IMG/VR virus record: IMGVR_UViG_3300044960_000379
Span: 1-52,784 of that record
Source of the DNA: a virus
Direction: 5' to 3' (one strand)
Length of the DNA stretch: 52,784 nt
A program made the translations under genes and the position numbers. Shown here one piece after another: positions 35,462 to 52,784 of the stretch (position 1 is the stretch's first letter; the number at the start of each line of letters is the position of its first letter). Below the pieces are notes generated by a model. That model was not told where the DNA came from. It saw only the letters and a program-made list of their open reading frames with translations, and did not search any database.

Positions 35462-36631
35462 TCAATCTCCAATTCTCACGGAGCGGCCCCAAGGGGCGGT
35501 GATTTCGGTGGTGAACGCCCAGACCACAGGGTAGCCGGGTGCCCGCTGCGGGAACGTGCCGTAGCCGTCGGTGAAGTAGACGAGCGCAGACGGGCGGGCG
35601 ACATGCGCGCGGACCCAATCGAACGGCGGCCGGAAGTCGGTCCCGCCGCCGCCGCACGGCGACAGGACAAGGTCGGAAGGCCGGTCGAACGTCTCAACCT
35701 TGTTGACGTCCGCATCGCAGTAGACGACGTGGATTTTCTCCGGCCGCGTCTGCGCGCAGAGTTGGCGAATGTAGGACTCGAAGCGCCCGAGCACGCCGTC
35801 GTCGATGGACCCGCTGGTGTCCACGACGAGGACAAACTCGCCAGCCGGCTCGCGCCTCCTGCCCGGCATGAGCGTCGGCAACTGGCTGCGCCGCGACGGG
35901 CGCGCCCAGCTGCGGTCGTCCGTCAGGCGGGCATGGGCGGACAGGACCACATGCGCCAGCACGCGCCGCCAGTCGACCTTCGGCGCTGCCACCGCCTGCA
36001 CGACGCGCTCGACCATGGCGGAGACATTCCCGACCGTCTTGGCGGCCGCAGCGGCGGAGATGATGTCCGCCGCCACCTGCGGAGCGGCGGACTCGTCGGA
36101 GTCCAGAATCGCGTCGAAGCCGCCGGAAACGTCGCCGCTGCCGGAGCCGCCCTGCGGGGCGGCAGCCACCAGCCGATCATAGATCGCCTCGGCGCTGTCG
36201 TCGGTGCCGACGCGAGGATCGAACAGGTAGGCGAACGACCGCATCGGCGCGCGGCCGGACAGCACGTCGATCAGGCCGCCGATGTGCATGGGCGGGCCGT
36301 CCTCGGCCGGGAAGTCGAACCTGAACCCCCGGCGCATCAACTCGGCGTTGATGACGAAATCGGCGGCCATGTTCCACAGGTTCGGCCAGCGCGACCCGCG
36401 CCGGATGTTGTGCAGCGTCGCCTTGTGCCACGCCTCATGGGCGAGCACGGTGGCGCGGGTCGCGTCGTCCAGCCTGCCCATGAAGGTCGGGTTGTAGAGC
36501 ACGACCTTGACGCAGTCGGTCGCTGCCGTCTGCTGCGACTCGTCAGGAGTCAGCGTCATCGTGGAAAGGACGGACGCCTCGAAAGGCGCCCCTCCGATGA
36601 GAATGGCCAGAGCCTTGCGAAGATCGGCCAT
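35462..36631 (-). CDS. Metallopeptidase-like + VWA protein (DUF2201 type)
   Basis: 389 aa. The N-terminal DUF2201-like domain has a zinc-type motif, H65-E-A-W-H69 in VLAHEAWHKATLHN, followed by NMAADFVINAELMRRGF. A Gly/Ser/Asp linker (about 160-180) joins it to a VWA domain with the MIDAS motif D271-T-S-G-S and a late GGGGTDFRPPF/FTDGYG. VWA proteins of this kind pair with MoxR ATPases, encoded here 3 nt upstream. Known relatives assist cofactor or metal insertion. Confidence 0.8.
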   Translation of the reverse strand: MADLRKALAILIGGAPFEASVLSTMTLTPDESQQTAATDCVKVVLYNPTFMGRLDDATRATVLAHEAWHKATLHNIRRGSRWPNLWNMAADFVINAELMRRGFRFDFPAEDGPPMHIGGLIDVLSGRAPMRSFAYLFDPRVGTDDSAEAIYDRLVAAAPQGGSGSGDVSGGFDAILDSDESAAPQVAADIISAAAAAKTVGNVSAMVERVVQAVAAPKVDWRRVLAHVVLSAHARLTDDRSWARPSRRSQLPTLMPGRRREPAGEFVLVVDTSGSIDDGVLGRFESYIRQLCAQTRPEKIHVVYCDADVNKVETFDRPSDLVLSPCGGGGTDFRPPFDWVRAHVARPSALVYFTDGYGTFPQRAPGYPVVWAFTTEITAPWGRSVRIGD

Positions 36632-37758: not shown

Positions 37759-37787
37759 ATCATAGCAAATAACGCTTGTTGTGTCAA
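37759..37787 (-). promoter_or_regulatory. Sigma70-type promoter for the MoxR operon
   Basis: Read on the minus strand: TTGACA (37787-37782), 17-bp spacer, TATGAT (37764-37759). The expected start is about 40 nt before the MoxR ATG. The spacer and -35 lie in a palindrome (37767-37796). Confidence 0.8.
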
Positions 37788-37796
37788 GCGTTATTT
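37767..37796. promoter_or_regulatory. 12-bp inverted repeat, operator or terminator
   Basis: AAATAACGCTTG (37767-37778), 6-nt spacer, CAAGCGTTATTT (37785-37796): a perfect dyad overlapping the -35 box and spacer of the MoxR promoter and the TAA stop of the last Cys-x-x gene. It suits a dimeric repressor. As RNA it could also form a weak terminator hairpin for the Cys-x-x transcripts, followed by ATTTTTTAG 24 nt on. Confidence 0.6.
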
Positions 37797-38069
37797 ATGA
37801 CTGTCGGCGGCTCGGCGAACGCCGGCGCAGCCCCGGCACCGGGCGCAGTCGAGGCAGTCGAAGCAGTCCCGGCACTGGACGCACCCGACGCAGCTCACGC
37901 AATCGGTGCAGCCGTAGCAGTCGACGCAGTTGAAGCAGTCGACGCAGCCGACGCAGTTCTTCAGCGTCGCCAGTGCCGCCAGCGCGAGCGTTTTCGCGCC
38001 CCACATGGCCAGCGACGCCCGATTGCCGTTCTCGTCGACGACCCATCCGGCGGGTGGGTCTACGGCCAT
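37791..38069 (-). CDS. Cys-x-x triplet repeat protein, copy 5 (shortest)
   Basis: 92 aa. It starts MAVDPPAGWVVDENGNRASL, the family N-terminus in diverged form, then WGAKTLALAALATL. Fifteen consecutive C-x-x triplets follow (from NCVGCVDCFNCVDC). It ends without cysteine (RRAADSHK). It overlaps the previous gene by 10 nt; the upstream GAAGGAG is still in place. It is the last of five tandem paralogues. Function unknown; metal binding is the simplest idea. Confidence 0.75.
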   Translation of the reverse strand: MAVDPPAGWVVDENGNRASLAMWGAKTLALAALATLKNCVGCVDCFNCVDCYGCTDCVSCVGCVQCRDCFDCLDCARCRGCAGVRRAADSHK

Positions 38070-38500
38070 GGACAGACTCCTTCGGTCCGGTCGGCGGCGA
38101 TGTTCCGCGCGCCGGTGTCACGCGAACAGCCTGCGCAGCAGGCACAGTTCTGGCAGTCGACGCAGCGGATACAGTCGGTGCAATCCGAGCATCGGCCGCA
38201 GCGGATGCAGCCGGAGCAGCCGGCGCAACCAGAGCAGCGGTGACAGCCGGTGCAATGGTAGCAGTCGTTGCACCAAGCGCAACCGGAGCAGCCGAAGCAC
38301 CGCAGGCATGCCGTGCTTTCGGTGCAGACCACGCACTCCTGGCAGTCGACGCAGTTGAAGCAGTCGGTGCAGCCGAAGCAGCCCTGCAGACTGTCAAGGG
38401 CGGCGCGCGCCGCCTCGACCGACCCCCACCGGGCGACCGACGCCCGATTGCCGTTCGCGTCGGTGATCCATTCGACGGCCATGTTTATGGTTCCTTTCAT
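38060..38500 (-). CDS. Cys-x-x triplet repeat protein, copy 4
   Basis: 146 aa. ATG 38500 forms ATGA with the previous stop and has AAGGAG 7 nt upstream; an ATG at 38482 is an alternative. The family N-terminus WITDANGNRASVARWGSVEA is followed by 28 cysteine triplets. One triplet has lost its Cys (TES, inside VVCTESTACLRC), but the register is kept. The spacers are more varied (YHC, AWC, HRC) than in the other copies. Tail: RNIAADRTEGVCPWP. The sequence between the two ATGs contains the GGAACCATAAACA repeat. Confidence 0.78.
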   Translation of the reverse strand: MKGTINMAVEWITDANGNRASVARWGSVEAARAALDSLQGCFGCTDCFNCVDCQECVVCTESTACLRCFGCSGCAWCNDCYHCTGCHRCSGCAGCSGCIRCGRCSDCTDCIRCVDCQNCACCAGCSRDTGARNIAADRTEGVCPWP

Positions 38501-38952
38501 GGGCGGACTCCTTCGAGTCGGTTGGCGTCGTTAAGGGCTTCGCAGCTGGCGCACTCGTCGCAGCGCGAGCAACGCAGGCACCCGTCGCAGTCGGTGCAGT
38601 CCGAGCAGTCGGTGCATCGCCGGCAGCCGGAGCAGTCGGTGCAGTCCGAGCAGTCGGTGCAGTCGACACAGCCGGAGCAGTCGGCGCACCACGAGCAGTC
38701 GGCGCAGTGACGACAGCCGGAGCAGTCGGCGCACCACGAGCAGTCGGCGCAGTGACGACAGCCGGAGCAGTCGGCGCACCACGAGCAGTCGGCGCAGTGA
38801 CGACAGCCCGAGCAGCCCGAGCAGTCGGCACAGTCGGTGCAGCCGGAGCAGCCCTGCAGGCTGTCGAGGACGGCGCGCGCCGCCTCGACCGACCCCCACC
38901 GGGCGACCGACGCCCGGTTGCCGTTCGCGTCAGTGATCCATTTCGTGGTCAT
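38497..38952 (-). CDS. Cys-x-x triplet repeat protein, copy 3 (longest array)
   Basis: 151 aa. N-terminus MTTKWITDANGNRASVARWG then SVEAARAVLDSL; 35 consecutive cysteine triplets follow, the most regular in the set. A 15-residue block starting SGCRHCADCSWCADC is repeated exactly three times. Tail: EALNDANRLEGVRP. The ATG makes ATGA with the preceding stop, and the upstream GAAGGAG lies within a GACTC/GAGTC palindrome. Cysteine at every third position would line one face of an extended or PPII-like helix. Confidence 0.8.
   Translation of the reverse strand: MTTKWITDANGNRASVARWGSVEAARAVLDSLQGCSGCTDCADCSGCSGCRHCADCSWCADCSGCRHCADCSWCADCSGCRHCADCSWCADCSGCVDCTDCSDCTDCSGCRRCTDCSDCTDCDGCLRCSRCDECASCEALNDANRLEGVRP
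38671..38805. repeat. 45-bp tandem repeat, three exact copies
   Basis: Copies at 38671-38715, 38716-38760 and 38761-38805, in frame within Cys-x-x copy 3 (15 residues each). Perfect identity points to recent expansion. Confidence 0.9.
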
Positions 38953-39323
38953 GGGCGGACTCCTTCGAGTCGGTTGGCCTTGGTCACGTTCCGGCAGTCG
39001 GCGCAGCCGGAGCAGTCGACGCACCGGACGCAGCCCGAGCAGCCGGAGCAGTCGGCGCAGTAACGACAGCCGGCGCAGTCGGAGCAGCCCCGGCAGCCGA
39101 CGCACCGGACACAGTCGACGCAGTTGGAGCAGTCGACGCACCGGACGCAGCCCGAGCAGCCGGAGCAGTCGAAGCAACCCGAGCAGTCCCGCAAGGTGGC
39201 GAGGGCGGCGCGCGCCGCCTCGACGGACCCCCATCGGTCGACAGATGCGTGGTTGCCGTTCGCGTCGGTGACCCACGCGATGGTCATGGACGTGGCCAAG
39301 GACGCAGTCATGGACGCGATCAT
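38949..39323 (-). CDS. Cys-x-x triplet repeat protein, copy 2
   Basis: 124 aa from the ATG at 39323 with AAGGAG 8 nt upstream. It has an extra Met/Ala/Ser-rich leader (MIASMTASLATSMTIA) before the family motif WVTDANGNHASVDRWGSVEA; the leader is weakly hydrophobic. Twenty-two cysteine triplets follow. Tail: RNVTKANRLEGVRP. The last codons (RLEGV) contain the ribosome site for copy 3. Confidence 0.78.
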   Translation of the reverse strand: MIASMTASLATSMTIAWVTDANGNHASVDRWGSVEAARAALATLRDCSGCFDCSGCSGCVRCVDCSNCVDCVRCVGCRGCSDCAGCRYCADCSGCSGCVRCVDCSGCADCRNVTKANRLEGVRP

Positions 39324-39325
39324 GG

Positions 39326-39766
39326 TCAGGCTCCTTCGAGTCGGTTGGCGTTGGTCACGTTCCGGCAGTCCGAGCAGCCGGAGCAGCCGGAGCAGTCGAC
39401 ACAGTCGAGGCAGTCGGTGCAGCCCCGGCAGCTGGCGCACCGGACGCAGCCGGAGCAGCCATAGCAACCGGCGCAGTCCGAGCAGTCCGCGCAGCCGAAG
39501 CAGCCCCGGCAGCCGGAGCAGCTGGCGCACCGGACGCAGCCGGAGCAGTCGACGCAGCCGGAGCAGTCGGCGCAACTGCGGCAGTCGAGGCAGTCCGAGC
39601 AGTCGGTGCATCGCCGGCAGCCGGAGCAGTCGGCGCAGTTGGTGCAGTCGACGCAGTCACGGCAGCCTCGCAGGGAGGCAAGGGCGGCGCGCGCCGCCTC
39701 GGCCGATCCCCAGCGGTCGACCGACGCCCGGTTGCCGTTCGCGTCGGTGATCCATTTCGTGGTCAT
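39326..39766 (-). CDS. Cys-x-x triplet repeat protein, copy 1
   Basis: 146 aa. N-terminus MTTKWITDANGNRASVDRWG then SAEAARAALASL; 34 consecutive triplets follow. The residues between cysteines are mostly S-G, V-D, A-D, T-D, R-G. Tail: RNVTNANRLEGA. The ATG overlaps the stop of the 591-aa gene. I do not recognise a named family. (Cys-x-x)n with short Asp/Gly/Ser spacers could chelate many Zn or Fe-S units, or form disulfide-laddered helices. Confidence 0.8.
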   Translation of the reverse strand: MTTKWITDANGNRASVDRWGSAEAARAALASLRGCRDCVDCTNCADCSGCRRCTDCSDCLDCRSCADCSGCVDCSGCVRCASCSGCRGCFGCADCSDCAGCYGCSGCVRCASCRGCTDCLDCVDCSGCSGCSDCRNVTNANRLEGA

Positions 39767-41538
39767 GGGCAGACCTCCTCGCGCCGGATCAGATGCGCCT
39801 GCACGGACGCCGGCGCCTTGCCCCGTCCGGCGACGTGCAGCAGCGGCACGGTCGGCGCGATCAGGATCGTCAGCCCCGCGTATCGGCTGCCGCCGAACCT
39901 CACCTGCAGCGACCGCGCAAGGGCGACGGCCGTCGGCACGCCGAACCAGCCGATCATCGTCGCCAGCGCCGCTTCGCCGGGCGCGACGGGGCCGGCCAGC
40001 GCCGCCTCGACCGCACGCACGTCGCCCTTCGACGCACGCAAGGCGCCGCGCAGCCGATCCGCCCCCGGGACGTGCAGCCCCACCAGCCCGCGCCCGGCGA
40101 AGCGCGGACCGCGCCGCGCCTGATCCAGATCGCCGGAAAGCACCGCCACGGTCAGCGGGGCGGGCGGAACGGGCGGAGCGTGCGGATCGGAAGCATCGGA
40201 GGCATCGGAGGCATCGGTGTCGAGCAGCAGCGCCGTCCGGACGAACGTCTCCGTGGCCGCAGGGTCGAGCAGCAGCACTTCGCCGGACCGGACGTCAGGC
40301 ACCAGAGACAGTCCGCAGTCCACCGCCGGGGCAGCCCCGCTCGCCGAACGACAGAACACGCGCGCCACGTCGCCCCTGCGCGTCCCGTCCGCCGTCGGCG
40401 AGCGCACCACCGACGACAGAAGCGCCGGATCGCCGCCGATCATGCCAGCGACAGCCTCGCGCGCCCGGTGCCAGACAGTCGCCGAGGACACAAGCGAGTC
40501 GCCTCCCGAGGAGGCCGAGGACACAAGCGAGCCGTGCTCCGGGACCGCCGCCGTCGCAGCCGCCGCCACCAGCACATGCCCGCGCCGGATGGAGCCGTCC
40601 GGCATGGTGTGCGAGCAGGCCGGCAGCGCCGTGGCGAACACGTCGGACTCCACGAGTCCGACAGCGCCGCTCATGTCGCGCATCGTCTCGACGGCGACGC
40701 GAACGCGCTCGACCCGATCCGCGAGCGCCTGCGGATCGTCATCCCAGACAACTCGCACCATCCCGCCCTGCCGGAACCCATCCACATCGCACGGACGGGC
40801 GCGGAGCGGCGAGATGACGCCGCACCAGCCCATGGCGAGCGCGCCATGCGCGGAACCGTCAGGCACGAACACCGTGCTGGACCCGTCAGGATCGGAGGAG
40901 TCGTATTCCATCCCGGCCGCCACCAGCGCACGGATCGGCACGTAGGGACGCGACGACAGGGACGCCGGCGCGCCAGCCTCCCGCAACCGGACCACGGGGC
41001 AGAACACCGGCACCGTCGTTGTCGAGTGAAACACGCTATGCTCCGGCAAGGGCAAGGGCACGAACACGGGCGTGCCGTCACGCGGTCCGACCGCCAGCGG
41101 CGGCAGGACAGACTCCGGGAGTCCGAGCGTGATGGTGGTAGTGCCGTCTAGCTTCTGCCGGGCCCACAGACCAGGAACCCACCTGCTCAGCAGCGCGTTG
41201 AGCCGGCGCGCCGTGCTCGCCGAGCCATACCCGTCAACCGCGAAACCGACCACACGGGCATCGGCAATACACTCCGGAAGCGGCGGGATCACGCCGACCG
41301 GCCGCCCCGGCATCGGCCGGAACCCCTTCATCCAGCGGCGGAGCGAACGCTGATCCGCCACGTCGAGCCAGCGCGGACCGGACAGGCGAACGTAGAAGAT
41401 GTTCCTGGAGAAATGCGACCACACGATCAGGTTCCGGTCGCAGTAGAAGGTCACGGTGGTGCTGCTGCCGCAGGACCGCGCGTAGATGAGCTGCGGCTCG
41501 GGCTGGGCCGGACGGCGAGGACGGTGAAGGTTGGGCAT
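39763..41538 (-). CDS. 591-aa protein heading the Cys-x-x operon, unknown
   Basis: 591 aa from MPNLHRPRR; CCGGAG lies 7 nt upstream, inside a GACTC/GAGTC palindrome. An upstream ATG at 41604 would leave almost no leader after the promoter and has no ribosome site. The chain is globular (YARSCGSSTTVTFYCDRNLI; MIGWFGVPTAVALARSLQVR) with a Ser/Asp-rich stretch DTDASDASDASDPHAPP. The C-terminal 100 residues look like a separate alpha/beta domain. It is coupled by ATGA to Cys-x-x copy 1. No motif identified; it may modify or use the Cys proteins. Confidence 0.6.
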   Translation of the reverse strand: MPNLHRPRRPAQPEPQLIYARSCGSSTTVTFYCDRNLIVWSHFSRNIFYVRLSGPRWLDVADQRSLRRWMKGFRPMPGRPVGVIPPLPECIADARVVGFAVDGYGSASTARRLNALLSRWVPGLWARQKLDGTTTITLGLPESVLPPLAVGPRDGTPVFVPLPLPEHSVFHSTTTVPVFCPVVRLREAGAPASLSSRPYVPIRALVAAGMEYDSSDPDGSSTVFVPDGSAHGALAMGWCGVISPLRARPCDVDGFRQGGMVRVVWDDDPQALADRVERVRVAVETMRDMSGAVGLVESDVFATALPACSHTMPDGSIRRGHVLVAAAATAAVPEHGSLVSSASSGGDSLVSSATVWHRAREAVAGMIGGDPALLSSVVRSPTADGTRRGDVARVFCRSASGAAPAVDCGLSLVPDVRSGEVLLLDPAATETFVRTALLLDTDASDASDASDPHAPPVPPAPLTVAVLSGDLDQARRGPRFAGRGLVGLHVPGADRLRGALRASKGDVRAVEAALAGPVAPGEAALATMIGWFGVPTAVALARSLQVRFGGSRYAGLTILIAPTVPLLHVAGRGKAPASVQAHLIRREEVCP

Positions 41539-41622
41539 GAGCAGACTCCGGGGAGTCGGCCGGGGCGACTGCCACGCGCCGTCCGGCCTGCGTGAATAAG
41601 GCATAACTGTGGCAGTATTTGA

Positions 41623-41651
41623 ATTATAGCATCATATACATTGGGTGTCAA
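41623..41651 (-). promoter_or_regulatory. Consensus sigma70 promoter for the Cys-x-x operon
   Basis: Minus strand: TTGACA (41651-41646), 17-bp spacer, TATAAT (41628-41623). Both hexamers are exact consensus. The start of transcription is expected near 41616, giving a leader of about 78 nt to the chosen ATG at 41538, with the palindrome at 41544-41557 covering the ribosome site. Confidence 0.88.
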
Positions 41652-42498
41652 TAGCGGAGTTATGTGGGAAAAGGGGCTTATATACAGTCGTGAGCGGCTT
41701 TCCCACAATTGGTTTGTTGTCCGTTTTAGGGAAGCAATCCTAGAGTGAGCACCCAATTGTGGCAGACGGCGGCTCAAAGCAGGTAAGCCCAGTCAACCTC
41801 GGCGACCCCAGCGTTGTGTGGAGCCAGTGATTATTTTTCTCGGCCCTCTCGGAGCCGAATGTGTCAAAATTAAGGAATGTGGGATTACGGCGACTGCGGC
41901 ACATAGCGGCGATAAGTAGGCTCAGTAGGGAGACTTGGCTTGTTTTGCCGCCAGGATGCGGAAAACCCAGATGTATACGTAGCAAATGGCGGAGGCGGCA
42001 CTGGGCATACGTAACGGAATTATATATGCCGAGCGGCGTAAGAGGGATTGCGGCGGGGCTATATGCGTATACGCGCGGCGTGTTTTGCGGGGTGGAGGGC
42101 GCGGAGAGGGAAGTCCAGAGGGTGTGTGGGGGGTCGTGGTATTGCTGTCTCAGTGAAGGAAATGGAGGTATAAAAATGCGAATGTGGCGGAGGTGTGGCG
42201 TTGCCACAATTCGCCGCCGCTGACGAGACCCTACCTTCCAGTTATATGATAAGATTCACTAGTAAATAATGTCTTTGCTGTATATATCCAAGTCCATACG
42301 CATTTCTATGGACAGATAGACCGCCCCCAAAGTGCCGCTTACGGACAATTTCCATTCGCCTACTCTTTATAAGTCAGTTTATTGGTATGACGGCACGAAG
42401 AATGCCTAGCCAAGTTTCCCGAAATAAAATACTGGGTATACATACTCATTTTCGCCACAATCGCCAGTGTAGTTTCTCGCTCCCGGCCAACAGACCGC
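41652..42498. other. AT-rich non-coding island, possible origin or control region
   Basis: About 850 bp without a convincing gene. GC in sampled 60-bp lines is about 32-48%, against about 65% elsewhere. It lies between divergent promoters (41651 leftward, 42499 rightward). AATTGTGG or its complement recurs (near 41703, 41754, 42205; a partial near 42456), as does GTATAC (41973, 42067, 42438). Two overlapping ORFs (41740-42207 minus; 41861-42223 plus) lack family features. I see no tRNA. Candidate replication origin or regulator-binding region, or recently acquired DNA. Confidence 0.5.
42176..42223 (+). CDS. Possible 15-aa peptide
   Basis: GGAGG at 42164-42168 is ideally spaced before an ATG. 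The peptide MRMWRRCGVATIRRR is very basic. It ends at a TGA inside the AT-rich island. It could be a leader peptide or chance. Its frame is the end of a longer, unconvincing ORF. Confidence 0.2.
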   Translation: MRMWRRCGVATIRRR

Positions 42499-42526
42499 TT
42501 GACAGCGCCGCTCGGCATGCTACCGT
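42499..42526 (+). promoter_or_regulatory. Probable sigma70 promoter for the 285-aa gene
   Basis: TTGACA at 42499-42504, 16-bp spacer, TACCGT at 42521-42526 with a TGC just before it (extended -10 style). The gene starts 37 nt further on. The -10 is weak, which suggests an activator or low basal expression. Confidence 0.5.
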
Positions 42527-44972: not shown

Positions 44973-45077
44973 CGACCCCCCATCGGACCAAAGGGGCGGG
45001 GGCGCCGTGGCTCCAAAAAGCAAGCCACTAGCTCGCGCTCGACGCCACTTCGCGCGGTGTGAAATCCGACAGGCCAC

Positions 45078-45210
45078 GCAACCCCAGCCCGACGGCGCAA
45101 CCCCAGCCCGACGGCGCAACCCCAGCCCGACGGCGCAACCCCAGCCCGACGGCGCAACCCCAGCCCGACGGCGCAACCCCAGCCCGACGGCGCAACCCCA
45201 GCCCGACGGC
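45078..45210. repeat. Seven 19-bp iteron-like direct repeats
   Basis: Unit GCAACCCCAGCCCGACGGC begins at 45078, 45097, 45116, 45135, 45154, 45173 and 45192; a degenerate eighth starts at 45211. The copies are identical with no spacers. A 19-bp period breaks the reading frame each time, so it is not a protein repeat. It lies in a non-coding stretch (44690-45466) between divergent units. Size and copy number match replication iterons or a packaging/protein-binding array. Confidence 0.9.
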
Positions 45211-45312
45211 GCGACCCCGCCGAACGACGGAAGACGCTCTTGACAGCGCGAAAGACATCCGGCACCGTAGCCTCGCTGTTTGGTTTTAGGATTTCCTCCT
45301 GAGCACGCGACT

Positions 45313-52120: not shown

Positions 52121-52784
52121 GCTGCAATCCCTGCGACCCGTGCTATCAGGGCCATGTTCCGGCCACGCTTTCGTCGCCGCTGCAGACGATTGCGGTGGAT
52201 CGGTCGGGTGTTGACCTGCAGACCTTCACCATCGACATCAACCCGGCGAACACCGCTCAGGCGCTGGCGCAGAGCCCCGCCGCAACCGCCACGTTGTGCG
52301 CTGCGCTGAGCAACTGCCTTAATCTGACGGTCGAGCTTCCTCTGGTTGGCGAAGGCACTCCGTCTGACCCGCTGCGGCTTCTCCCTCTTGGGACGGTCAA
52401 CCTCATCATCTCGCATCCGCCGGCCATGACGCTGCTGTGCGACGCCATTCGGTCGTGCGTCGGATCGCTGAGCATCGACGACATCATCAACTACGGCACC
52501 GACCCCGCAGGTTTCCCGATGGTCGTGGTCGTGAACCCCGACACCATCGGCATTCGCCGCCTTGTCGCCGGTCCCGGCATCGTGATTGTCCAGCAGCCGG
52601 ACGGCTCGTTGCGCATCGAGGCCAACTACGCCGAAATCTGCGCCGGGTTGACCTCGATCAACTGCGCCGTTGGCGGCGGAGGCGTCGGCTCGGTCGGCTC
52701 GGTCGGCACGGTCGGCACGGTCGGTGTCGGCACGGTCGGTGTCGGCACGGTCGGTGTCGGCACGGTCGGTGTCGGCACGGTCGG
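52117..52784 (+). CDS. Fibre-like virion protein with Gly-Val-Gly-Thr-Val repeats, 3' partial
   Basis: Runs off the right edge; 222 residues visible. It starts MSCNPCDPCYQGHVPATL, a Cys-rich opening like other late proteins here. A beta-rich body follows (TVNLIISHPPAMTLLC; PMVVVVNPDTIGIRRLVAG). From about residue 190 the chain is GSVGSVGTVGT then exact GVGTV units. Collagen-like or elastin-like glycine repeats are common in phage fibre stalks. ATGA coupling to the previous gene. Confidence 0.6.
   Translation, partial: MSCNPCDPCYQGHVPATLSSPLQTIAVDRSGVDLQTFTIDINPANTAQALAQSPAATATLCAALSNCLNLTVELPLVGEGTPSDPLRLLPLGTVNLIISHPPAMTLLCDAIRSCVGSLSIDDIINYGTDPAGFPMVVVVNPDTIGIRRLVAGPGIVIVQQPDGSLRIEANYAEICAGLTSINCAVGGGGVGSVGSVGTVGTVGVGTVGVGTVGVGTVGVGTV
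52723..52782. repeat. 15-bp tandem repeat at the right edge
   Basis: GGTGTCGGCACGGTC four times in exact succession from 52723, after degenerate copies from about 52683. In frame (Gly-Val-Gly-Thr-Val). The window stops inside the array, so its real length is unknown. Confidence 0.9.

What the first reader, a model, noticed from the sequence alone, without database searches (positions are those of the whole stretch)
37791..39766. Five tandem genes for proteins made of Cys-x-x triplets
Five coupled genes share an N-terminal motif (W-[IV]-T-D-A-N-G-N-x-A-S-V, then WGS and an Ala-rich helix) followed by 34, 22, 35, 28 and 15 triplets with cysteine at every third position: 134 in all. Register is held even where a Cys is lost (copy 4). 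I know no characterised family of this form. Inference: a multi-site metal (Zn, Fe-S, Cu) or redox protein, a disulfide-laddered helix, or a precursor that is chemically modified. Paralogue number and recent 45-bp expansion suggest selection for quantity or length.
Basis: partly seen in the sequence, partly recalled or inferred. Interest (0 to 1): 0.88.

Follow-up and report, generated by a model that had tools for sequence, protein, structure and literature searches.

The report
Cysteine-every-third-residue solenoid proteins in phages
A bacterial virus carries five linked genes for proteins with a cysteine at every third position, members of a large unstudied virus protein family that looks like a new kind of coiled, rod-shaped repeat protein with a cysteine-filled core.

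Summary
Five translationally coupled minus-strand genes carry 34, 22, 35, 28 and 15 in-register Cys-x-x triplets (134 in all) behind a shared N-terminal domain. Residue shuffles never gave runs above 9. This is not a one-off. The proteins match phrog_15341 (function unknown). I collected about 120 distinct homologues from phages, prophages and a plasmid, with 4-58 triplets, Cys in 99.7% of register positions, and almost only synonymous variation at the Cys codon.

What it is: most likely a new class of beta-solenoid repeat, one Cys-x-x triplet per side, Cys pointing inward. The key evidence is domain exchange. Two C-terminal domains found on Cys-triplet homologues are also fused, in other phages, to pentapeptide (PF00805), hexapeptide (PF00132) or YdcK (PF18836) beta-solenoids. 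AlphaFold2 gives a bridge at every third residue (one model of five confident), and the only significant solved-structure match by sequence is the Tenebrio antifreeze beta-helix.

Phage-encoded modification enzymes are not associated: radical SAM 2/50 versus 5/50 in controls, YcaO 0/50. Host function is unknown. I favour an early, moron-like binding rod acting on a host target, as pentapeptide-repeat proteins do. A metal-loaded thiolate core is not excluded.

The parts
39326..39766 (-). Cys-triplet gene 1: N-cap + 34 uninterrupted C-x-x triplets (146 aa)
   Evidence: phrog_15341 E 3.8e-25; AF2 model
38949..39323 (-). Cys-triplet gene 2: N-cap + 22 triplets; GAAGGAG then ATG 2 nt after the stop of gene 1
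38497..38952 (-). Cys-triplet gene 3: N-cap + 35 triplets, includes three exact copies of a 45-bp unit
38060..38500 (-). Cys-triplet gene 4: N-cap + 29 triplets, 28 with Cys (one Cys to Ser, register held)
37791..38069 (-). Cys-triplet gene 5: N-cap + 15 triplets
39763..41604 (-). First gene of the operon, 613 aa, no family match; its stop overlaps the start of gene 1 (ATGA). True start may be internal (ATG about 41538)
41623..41651 (-). Perfect sigma-70-type promoter (TTGACA-17-TATAAT, extended -10) ahead of the operon
   Evidence: 12 of 12; 0.6 promoter-like sites expected in shuffles of the 9.5-kb region
37759..37795 (-). Second promoter (TTGACA-17-TATGAT) for the next operon (AAA+ ATPase, DUF2201), overlapped by an inverted repeat AAATAACGCTTG...CAAGCGTTATTT; lies just after the last Cys gene

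Best explanation
The five genes encode members of a large phage family whose repeat domain is most likely a beta-solenoid made of Cys-x-x tripeptides. Each triplet forms one short side of the coil, the Cys side chain points into the core, and the two variable residues (mostly Ser, then Asp/Gly/Arg/Asn/Tyr) form the surface. A small N-terminal domain caps one end. In many homologues a C-terminal domain caps or equips the other end; the window copies lack it. The genes are accessory genes of a podovirus-like phage, probably transcribed early by host RNA polymerase. The rods most likely act by binding a host macromolecule, as pentapeptide-repeat proteins do, with length and surface residues changing quickly by triplet gain and loss. 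Shown: the repeat, its conservation, the family, the domain exchange, the gene coupling. Predicted: solenoid fold and inward Cys. Inferred: early timing, binding role (binding role alone about 0.35).
For: Domain exchange, C-domain A (WHTCxTTHCRAGW): of 62 classifiable intact reading frames, 55 carry Cys triplets and 7 carry pentapeptide repeats; Pfam PF00805 E 1e-28 to 1e-56 in the seven; 51% identity of the C-domain between the two types. C-domain B (IGSRxxQTTxYW...CGCFxG): fused to Cys triplets in most viral hits, to pentapeptides in Listeria phage LWP01, to hexapeptides in Chryseobacterium phage MA9V-1, to the YdcK solenoid in Bacteroides phage BF766P1. AF2: best model pLDDT 79, one bridge per triplet; significant BFVD matches are Cys-rich viral proteins, TM up to 0.65. 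Sequence profile hit to 1ezg, E 1.9e-5, a right-handed beta-helix with inner Cys2-Cys8 disulfides (PMC8038014). Selection: Cys bases 1-2 almost invariant, base 3 varies. No longer period and no preferred triplet number, as expected if each triplet is one equivalent side. Promoter 12/12.
Against: Four of five AF2 models of gene 1 were poor (pLDDT 51-57), and the Cys region of a C-domain homologue was not modelled (pLDDT 30-41). No confident PDB fold match. The window proteins lack the exchanged C-domains, so the domain-exchange argument applies through homology of the N-cap and repeat. C-domain statistics come from queries taken from Cys-triplet proteins, which biases the 55:7 ratio. No conserved neighbour or target points to a function.
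Confidence: 0.62

Rival explanations
1. Polythiol metal protein: the aligned cysteines bind Zn, Cu(I) or Fe-S in a linear thiolate core (inside a solenoid or along an extended chain), for metal storage, buffering or assembly.
For: 99.7% Cys at position 1 with almost only synonymous change; CxxC spacing throughout; no secretion signal visible in the sequence, so thiols would be reduced in the cytosol; Ser/Ala could fill a small core, so the exclusive use of Cys needs a reason.
Against: The neighbouring AAA+/DUF2201 pair, which could have been a metal-insertion pair, is not associated with the family (2/50, one of them the same virus, versus 2/50 controls) and is present in a relative that shows no Cys-triplet hit. 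No metal-related gene recurs nearby.
Confidence: 0.25
2. Not a folded solenoid: a flexible or PPII/3-10-like polythiol chain acting as a redox or electrophile sponge, where only Cys number matters.
For: Triplet number is unconstrained (4-58) and no period longer than 3 is seen; AF2 gives low confidence for the CSx-rich type.
Against: Strict 3-residue register even where Cys is lost; domain exchange with folded solenoids; profile match to TmAFP; conserved N-cap.
Confidence: 0.15
3. Precursor of a modified peptide (heterocycloanthracin-like or radical-SAM type), with Cys turned into rings or thioethers.
For: A bacteriocin family with repeated Cys-Xaa-Xaa exists (PMC2674419); Campylobacter phages with these genes carry 11-12 radical SAM genes (PMC2853527).
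Against: Radical SAM 2/50 versus 5/50 in control phages; YcaO 0/50; TIGR03601 far below cut-off (about 10-13 bits against 35); proteins are long, with folded caps.
Confidence: 0.04
4. DNA-level simple repeat translated by chance, without protein function.
For: The tract is repetitive at DNA level, and two of 69 C-domain loci appear to carry a frame-shifted tract (L250, L253).
Against: Within the tract the Cys codon varies almost only at its synonymous position while codons 2 and 3 vary freely; the register is conserved across phages of very different base composition; conserved N- and C-domains in frame.
Confidence: 0.02

Closest known systems
phrog_15341 (phage protein family of unknown function)
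   Same: All five proteins match, E 3.8e-25 to 1.5e-13; homologues with other caps also match.
   Different: The family has no assigned function or fold; it records presence only.
Pentapeptide-repeat proteins (PF00805; MfpA, Qnr)
   Same: Phage members carry the same C-terminal domains A and B; both are short-period repeats with no fixed copy number; surface tends to be acidic.
   Different: Three-residue unit with Cys (predicted) inward instead of five-residue A(D/N)LXX; no PF00805 match for the Cys-triplet proteins.
Tenebrio molitor antifreeze protein (1ezg, PF02420)
   Same: Only significant PDB match by sequence; narrow beta-helix with Cys in the core and (my reading of TCTxSxNCxxAx) inner residues spaced by three.
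   Different: No TCT ice-binding motif, no PF02420 hit, no signal peptide seen; every third residue is Cys instead of every sixth. 'Insect antifreeze' annotations in phage records are misleading.
Heterocycloanthracin/sonorensin bacteriocin precursors (TIGR03601)
   Same: Repeated Cys-Xaa-Xaa with triplet indels.
   Different: Short leader-peptide type with cyclodehydratase/dehydrogenase; none here; scores far below cut-off.

Membership tests
phrog_15341 | Match to the family profile | tested here: met
   E 3.8e-25, 1.5e-13, 1.7e-20, 6.1e-17, 4.1e-16 for the five proteins
Pentapeptide-repeat proteins (PF00805) | Tandem A(D/N)LXX repeats / Pfam profile match | tested here: not met
   no PF00805 match in the window proteins or Cys-triplet homologues
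Pentapeptide-repeat proteins (PF00805) | Shared accessory C-terminal domain in phage members (works-like test) | tested here: met
   domains A and B occur on both repeat types; not on the window copies themselves
Insect antifreeze protein (PF02420/TmAFP) | 12-residue TCTxSxNCxxAx repeats and Pfam match | tested here: not met
   no PF02420 match, no TCT in any of the five; the 1ezg match rests on Cys spacing
Heterocycloanthracin (TIGR03601) | Score above curated cut-off of 35 bits | tested here: not met
   10.4 and 12.8 bits
Heterocycloanthracin (TIGR03601) | YcaO-type cyclodehydratase in the genome | tested here: not met
   0 of 50 family phages; the host could supply it, not testable here
Radical-SAM modified triplet peptides (e.g. 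His-Xaa-Ser HxsA) | Dedicated radical SAM maturase encoded with the peptide | tested here: not met
   2/50 family phages versus 5/50 controls over cut-off; HxsA4 matches are far below cut-off
Metallothionein-like metal proteins | Stoichiometric metal binding | not testable with these tools
   Needs purified protein; no Pfam metallothionein match
Beta-solenoid | Regular stacked coils in a structure | tested here: inconclusive
   regular bridge every third residue, pLDDT 79 in one of five models; not modelled in a homologue; no confident PDB match

The most novel reading that the evidence does not exclude
A tripeptide-repeat beta-solenoid whose core is a continuous stack of cysteines that holds a linear metal-thiolate (or Fe-S) array: a genetically length-tuned metal wire or store made by phages, possibly also present in giant viruses (BFVD match in Mimiviridae ChoanoV1).
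Probability: 0.17. Interest if true: 0.93.

Novelty: new variant of a known kind. Interest (0 to 1): 0.74.

Why it matters
It would add a new repeat unit, only three residues long, to the beta-solenoids and give a fold to a large phage family that databases label 'hypothetical', 'insect antifreeze' or 'TNFR-Cys'. The domain exchange with pentapeptide, hexapeptide and YdcK solenoids suggests a wider set of phage proteins that share end domains and swap the rod between them, which makes their host targets searchable as a group. A cytosolic core made only of cysteines would also be a simple model for thiol packing or metal-thiolate chains.

Tried and rejected
Radical SAM or YcaO modification: no association. 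Link to the neighbouring AAA+ MoxR-type ATPase and DUF2201 genes: 2/50 versus 2/50, rejected as a general partner; in the relative RHph_TM3_14A the pair lies beside DNA polymerase and that phage shows no Cys-triplet hit. Conserved neighbours: clustering of genes within 6 kb around 107 loci gave only common replication/early genes, at most 10 loci per cluster. A longer structural period (up to 14 triplets) or preferred triplet number: none. Fold of C-domain A: well predicted but no PDB match. Literature for Cys-every-third repeat proteins in phages: nothing found beyond the Bacillus bacteriocin paper. DNA-mimic idea: the repeat tract is only mildly acidic (70% of genes net negative, median -3), weak support. 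Profile search with the full diverse alignment failed for lack of conserved stretches, so a tighter N-cap alignment was used. Many of the raw pattern hits were chance or out-of-frame (such as collagen-like repeats) and served as control phages.

Full report
The observation. The window holds five adjacent minus-strand genes (37791-39766) whose products consist of an N-terminal domain of about 34 residues followed by 34, 22, 35, 28 and 15 Cys-x-x triplets. Counts, motif, Cys-to-Ser substitution with register kept in copy 4, and the three exact copies of a 45-bp unit in gene 3 all check out. Uninterrupted runs of 34, 22, 35, 21 and 15 triplets compare with a maximum of 7-9 in 20,000 shuffles of each protein; elsewhere in the window the longest run is 3.

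Selection on the protein. In the window genes the first two bases of the Cys codon are almost invariant among triplets (only gene 4's single Ser departs), while its third base differs in up to 25% of comparisons and the bases of the other two codons in 27-76%. Over 134 homologous genes the Cys position is TGC 3085 and TGT 445, with 12 other codons. This is the pattern of selection for Cys in a fixed register, not of a drifting DNA repeat. Cys spacings other than 3 are rare (57 of about 3,030); most are either multiples of 3 or the 1+2 pairs made by an extra Cys inside a triplet.

Operon. Each gene begins within a few bases of, or overlapping, the preceding stop. The conserved tail '...RLEG(V)' reads GAAGGAG in the DNA, a ribosome-binding site for the next gene, so the tail need not be conserved for protein reasons. 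The operon begins with a 613-aa gene that matches nothing, behind a perfect sigma-70-type promoter in GC-poor DNA. A second strong promoter, overlapped by an inverted repeat, follows gene 5 and precedes an AAA+ ATPase and a DUF2201 gene. Host-type promoters suggest early transcription by host RNA polymerase; this is inference.

The virus. Family A DNA polymerase, major head protein, terminase and head-tail adaptor/portal genes are present. The closest cultured relatives by polymerase and capsid are Rhizobium phage RHph_TM3_14A and its kin, about 33-34% identity; Pseudomonas phages KPP25/phiR18 follow for the polymerase only. These relatives gave no Cys-triplet hit. In RHph_TM3_14A the ATPase and DUF2201 homologues lie close together, and the stretch ahead of them holds about 24 small genes, nearly all unknown. 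The Cys genes are therefore accessory.

The family. All five proteins match phrog_15341, function unknown, and nothing significant in Pfam or NCBIfam. tblastn finds them in Campylobacter phages (up to 12 places per genome), Flavobacterium FL-1, Vibrio 1.238, Acidovorax AP1, Aeromonas PS and a Campylobacter fetus plasmid. A profile scan found at least 137 relatives in viral contigs (80 kept) and 20 candidates in bacterial genome contigs. About 15 of the 20 look like clear members, including contigs of Kaistia, Bosea, Phyllobacterium, Rhizorhapis, Spirosoma and Dyadobacter; the low-scoring rest, such as the Streptomyces ones, look like chance. Two N-caps and three kinds of C-terminal domain recur. 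Position 2 is Ser in 72%, position 3 is Asp, Gly, Arg, Asn or Tyr in 90%. Multi-copy arrays also occur in other phages (window 5, L183 3, L025 4).

The key evidence: domain exchange. Searching with C-domain A alone returned 69 viral loci. Of 62 with a classifiable reading frame, 55 carry Cys triplets and 7 carry pentapeptide repeats in the same frame, confirmed by PF00805 at E 1e-28 to 1e-56; the C-domains of the two types are 51% identical. C-domain B is fused to Cys triplets in most viral hits, to pentapeptides in Listeria phage LWP01, to hexapeptides in Chryseobacterium phage MA9V-1 (PF00132) and to the YdcK solenoid in Bacteroides phage BF766P1 (PF18836). Two different C-domains thus accept Cys triplets in the place otherwise taken by three known beta-solenoids. 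The simplest reading is that the Cys-triplet tract is itself a beta-solenoid. The 55:7 ratio is biased, because the query came from a Cys-triplet protein.

Structure prediction. For a C-domain homologue the tract was not modelled (pLDDT 30-41) while the C-domain was mostly above 90. PDB fold searches gave no confident match, the weak ones for gene 1 being mostly beta-helices. BFVD gave two significant matches, both Cys-rich viral proteins by the search's own alignment and names, one with TM 0.61/0.65. By sequence profile the only significant PDB match is Tenebrio antifreeze protein, 1ezg, E 1.9e-5, a right-handed beta-helix of 12-residue coils with inner Cys2-Cys8 disulfides (PMC8038014).

No longer period. 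Residue identity at positions 2 and 3 shows no preferred lag from 1 to 14 triplets, and triplet number has no preference modulo 2-5. Each triplet therefore seems equivalent. That fits a solenoid whose sides are alike, as in pentapeptide repeats; it also fits a simple extended chain, which keeps the disordered or PPII rival alive.

Function. No partner gene recurs near the locus. Radical SAM genes are not enriched (2/50 versus 5/50), YcaO is absent (0/50), and DUF2201 is not enriched. Pentapeptide-repeat proteins whose role is known (MfpA, Qnr) bind gyrase, MfpA as a DNA mimic (PMC10886550). By analogy the most likely role is binding a host macromolecule early in infection. This step is inference at perhaps 0.35. 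Why the core should be all cysteine is not explained: free thiols packed in a narrow core, disulfides, or metal are all possible, and only experiment can decide.

Verdict. A real, selected, widespread and uncharacterised phage protein family; best described as a new repeat unit within beta-solenoids. Interest is high because the composition is extreme, the fold is inferred from an independent line of evidence (domain exchange), and metal loading is directly testable.

Noticed in passing
window 37759-37795: Strong promoter (TTGACA-17-TATGAT) overlapped by an inverted repeat AAATAACGCTTG-ACACAA-CAAGCGTTATTT; looks like a repressor-controlled promoter of the AAA+/DUF2201 operon. No second copy of the arm pair in the window.
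   Followed up: partly
window 41605-42500: About 0.9 kb of GC-poor (48-55% against 68%) apparently non-coding DNA ahead of the operon, with a perfect sigma-70 promoter at its end.
   Followed up: partly
window 45077-45218: Array of 7.5 near-identical 19-bp copies (CGCAACCCCAGCCCGACGG).
   Followed up: no
window 52711-52784: Exact 15-bp tandem repeat (GTCGGCACGGTCGGT, about 5 copies) running into the contig end.
   Followed up: no
window 35462-36631: PHROG 1314 labels this protein 'HNH endonuclease', but Pfam shows DUF2201_N plus a VWA-like DUF2201 domain; the PHROG label looks wrong.
   Followed up: partly
L250, L253: Reading frames with C-domain A preceded by ART/APA repeats: probably the Cys-triplet tract in a shifted frame (decay or sequencing error).
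   Followed up: partly
L008 5785-6616 (Flavobacterium phage FL-1): The Cys-triplet gene and its C-domain are annotated as two genes; a frame break appears to lie inside the C-domain.
   Followed up: no
L013, L014 (Campylobacter Firehammervirus): Cys-triplet genes lie a few genes from a radical SAM gene (L013) or a 'tryptophan halogenase' (L014); these phages carry 11-12 radical SAM genes, but the link does not hold in other family phages.
   Followed up: partly
BFVD A0A5B8IEK9: A Mimiviridae (ChoanoV1) protein named TNFR-Cys resembles the gene 1 model, suggesting that such repeats also occur in giant viruses of eukaryotes.
   Followed up: no
L056, L057, L082, L087, L125 and L321-L350: Further C-terminal domains (IGSRxxQTT..., LRMSEYxLFC...) recur on Cys-triplet proteins; the LRMSE type was not tested for exchange with other repeats.
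   Followed up: partly
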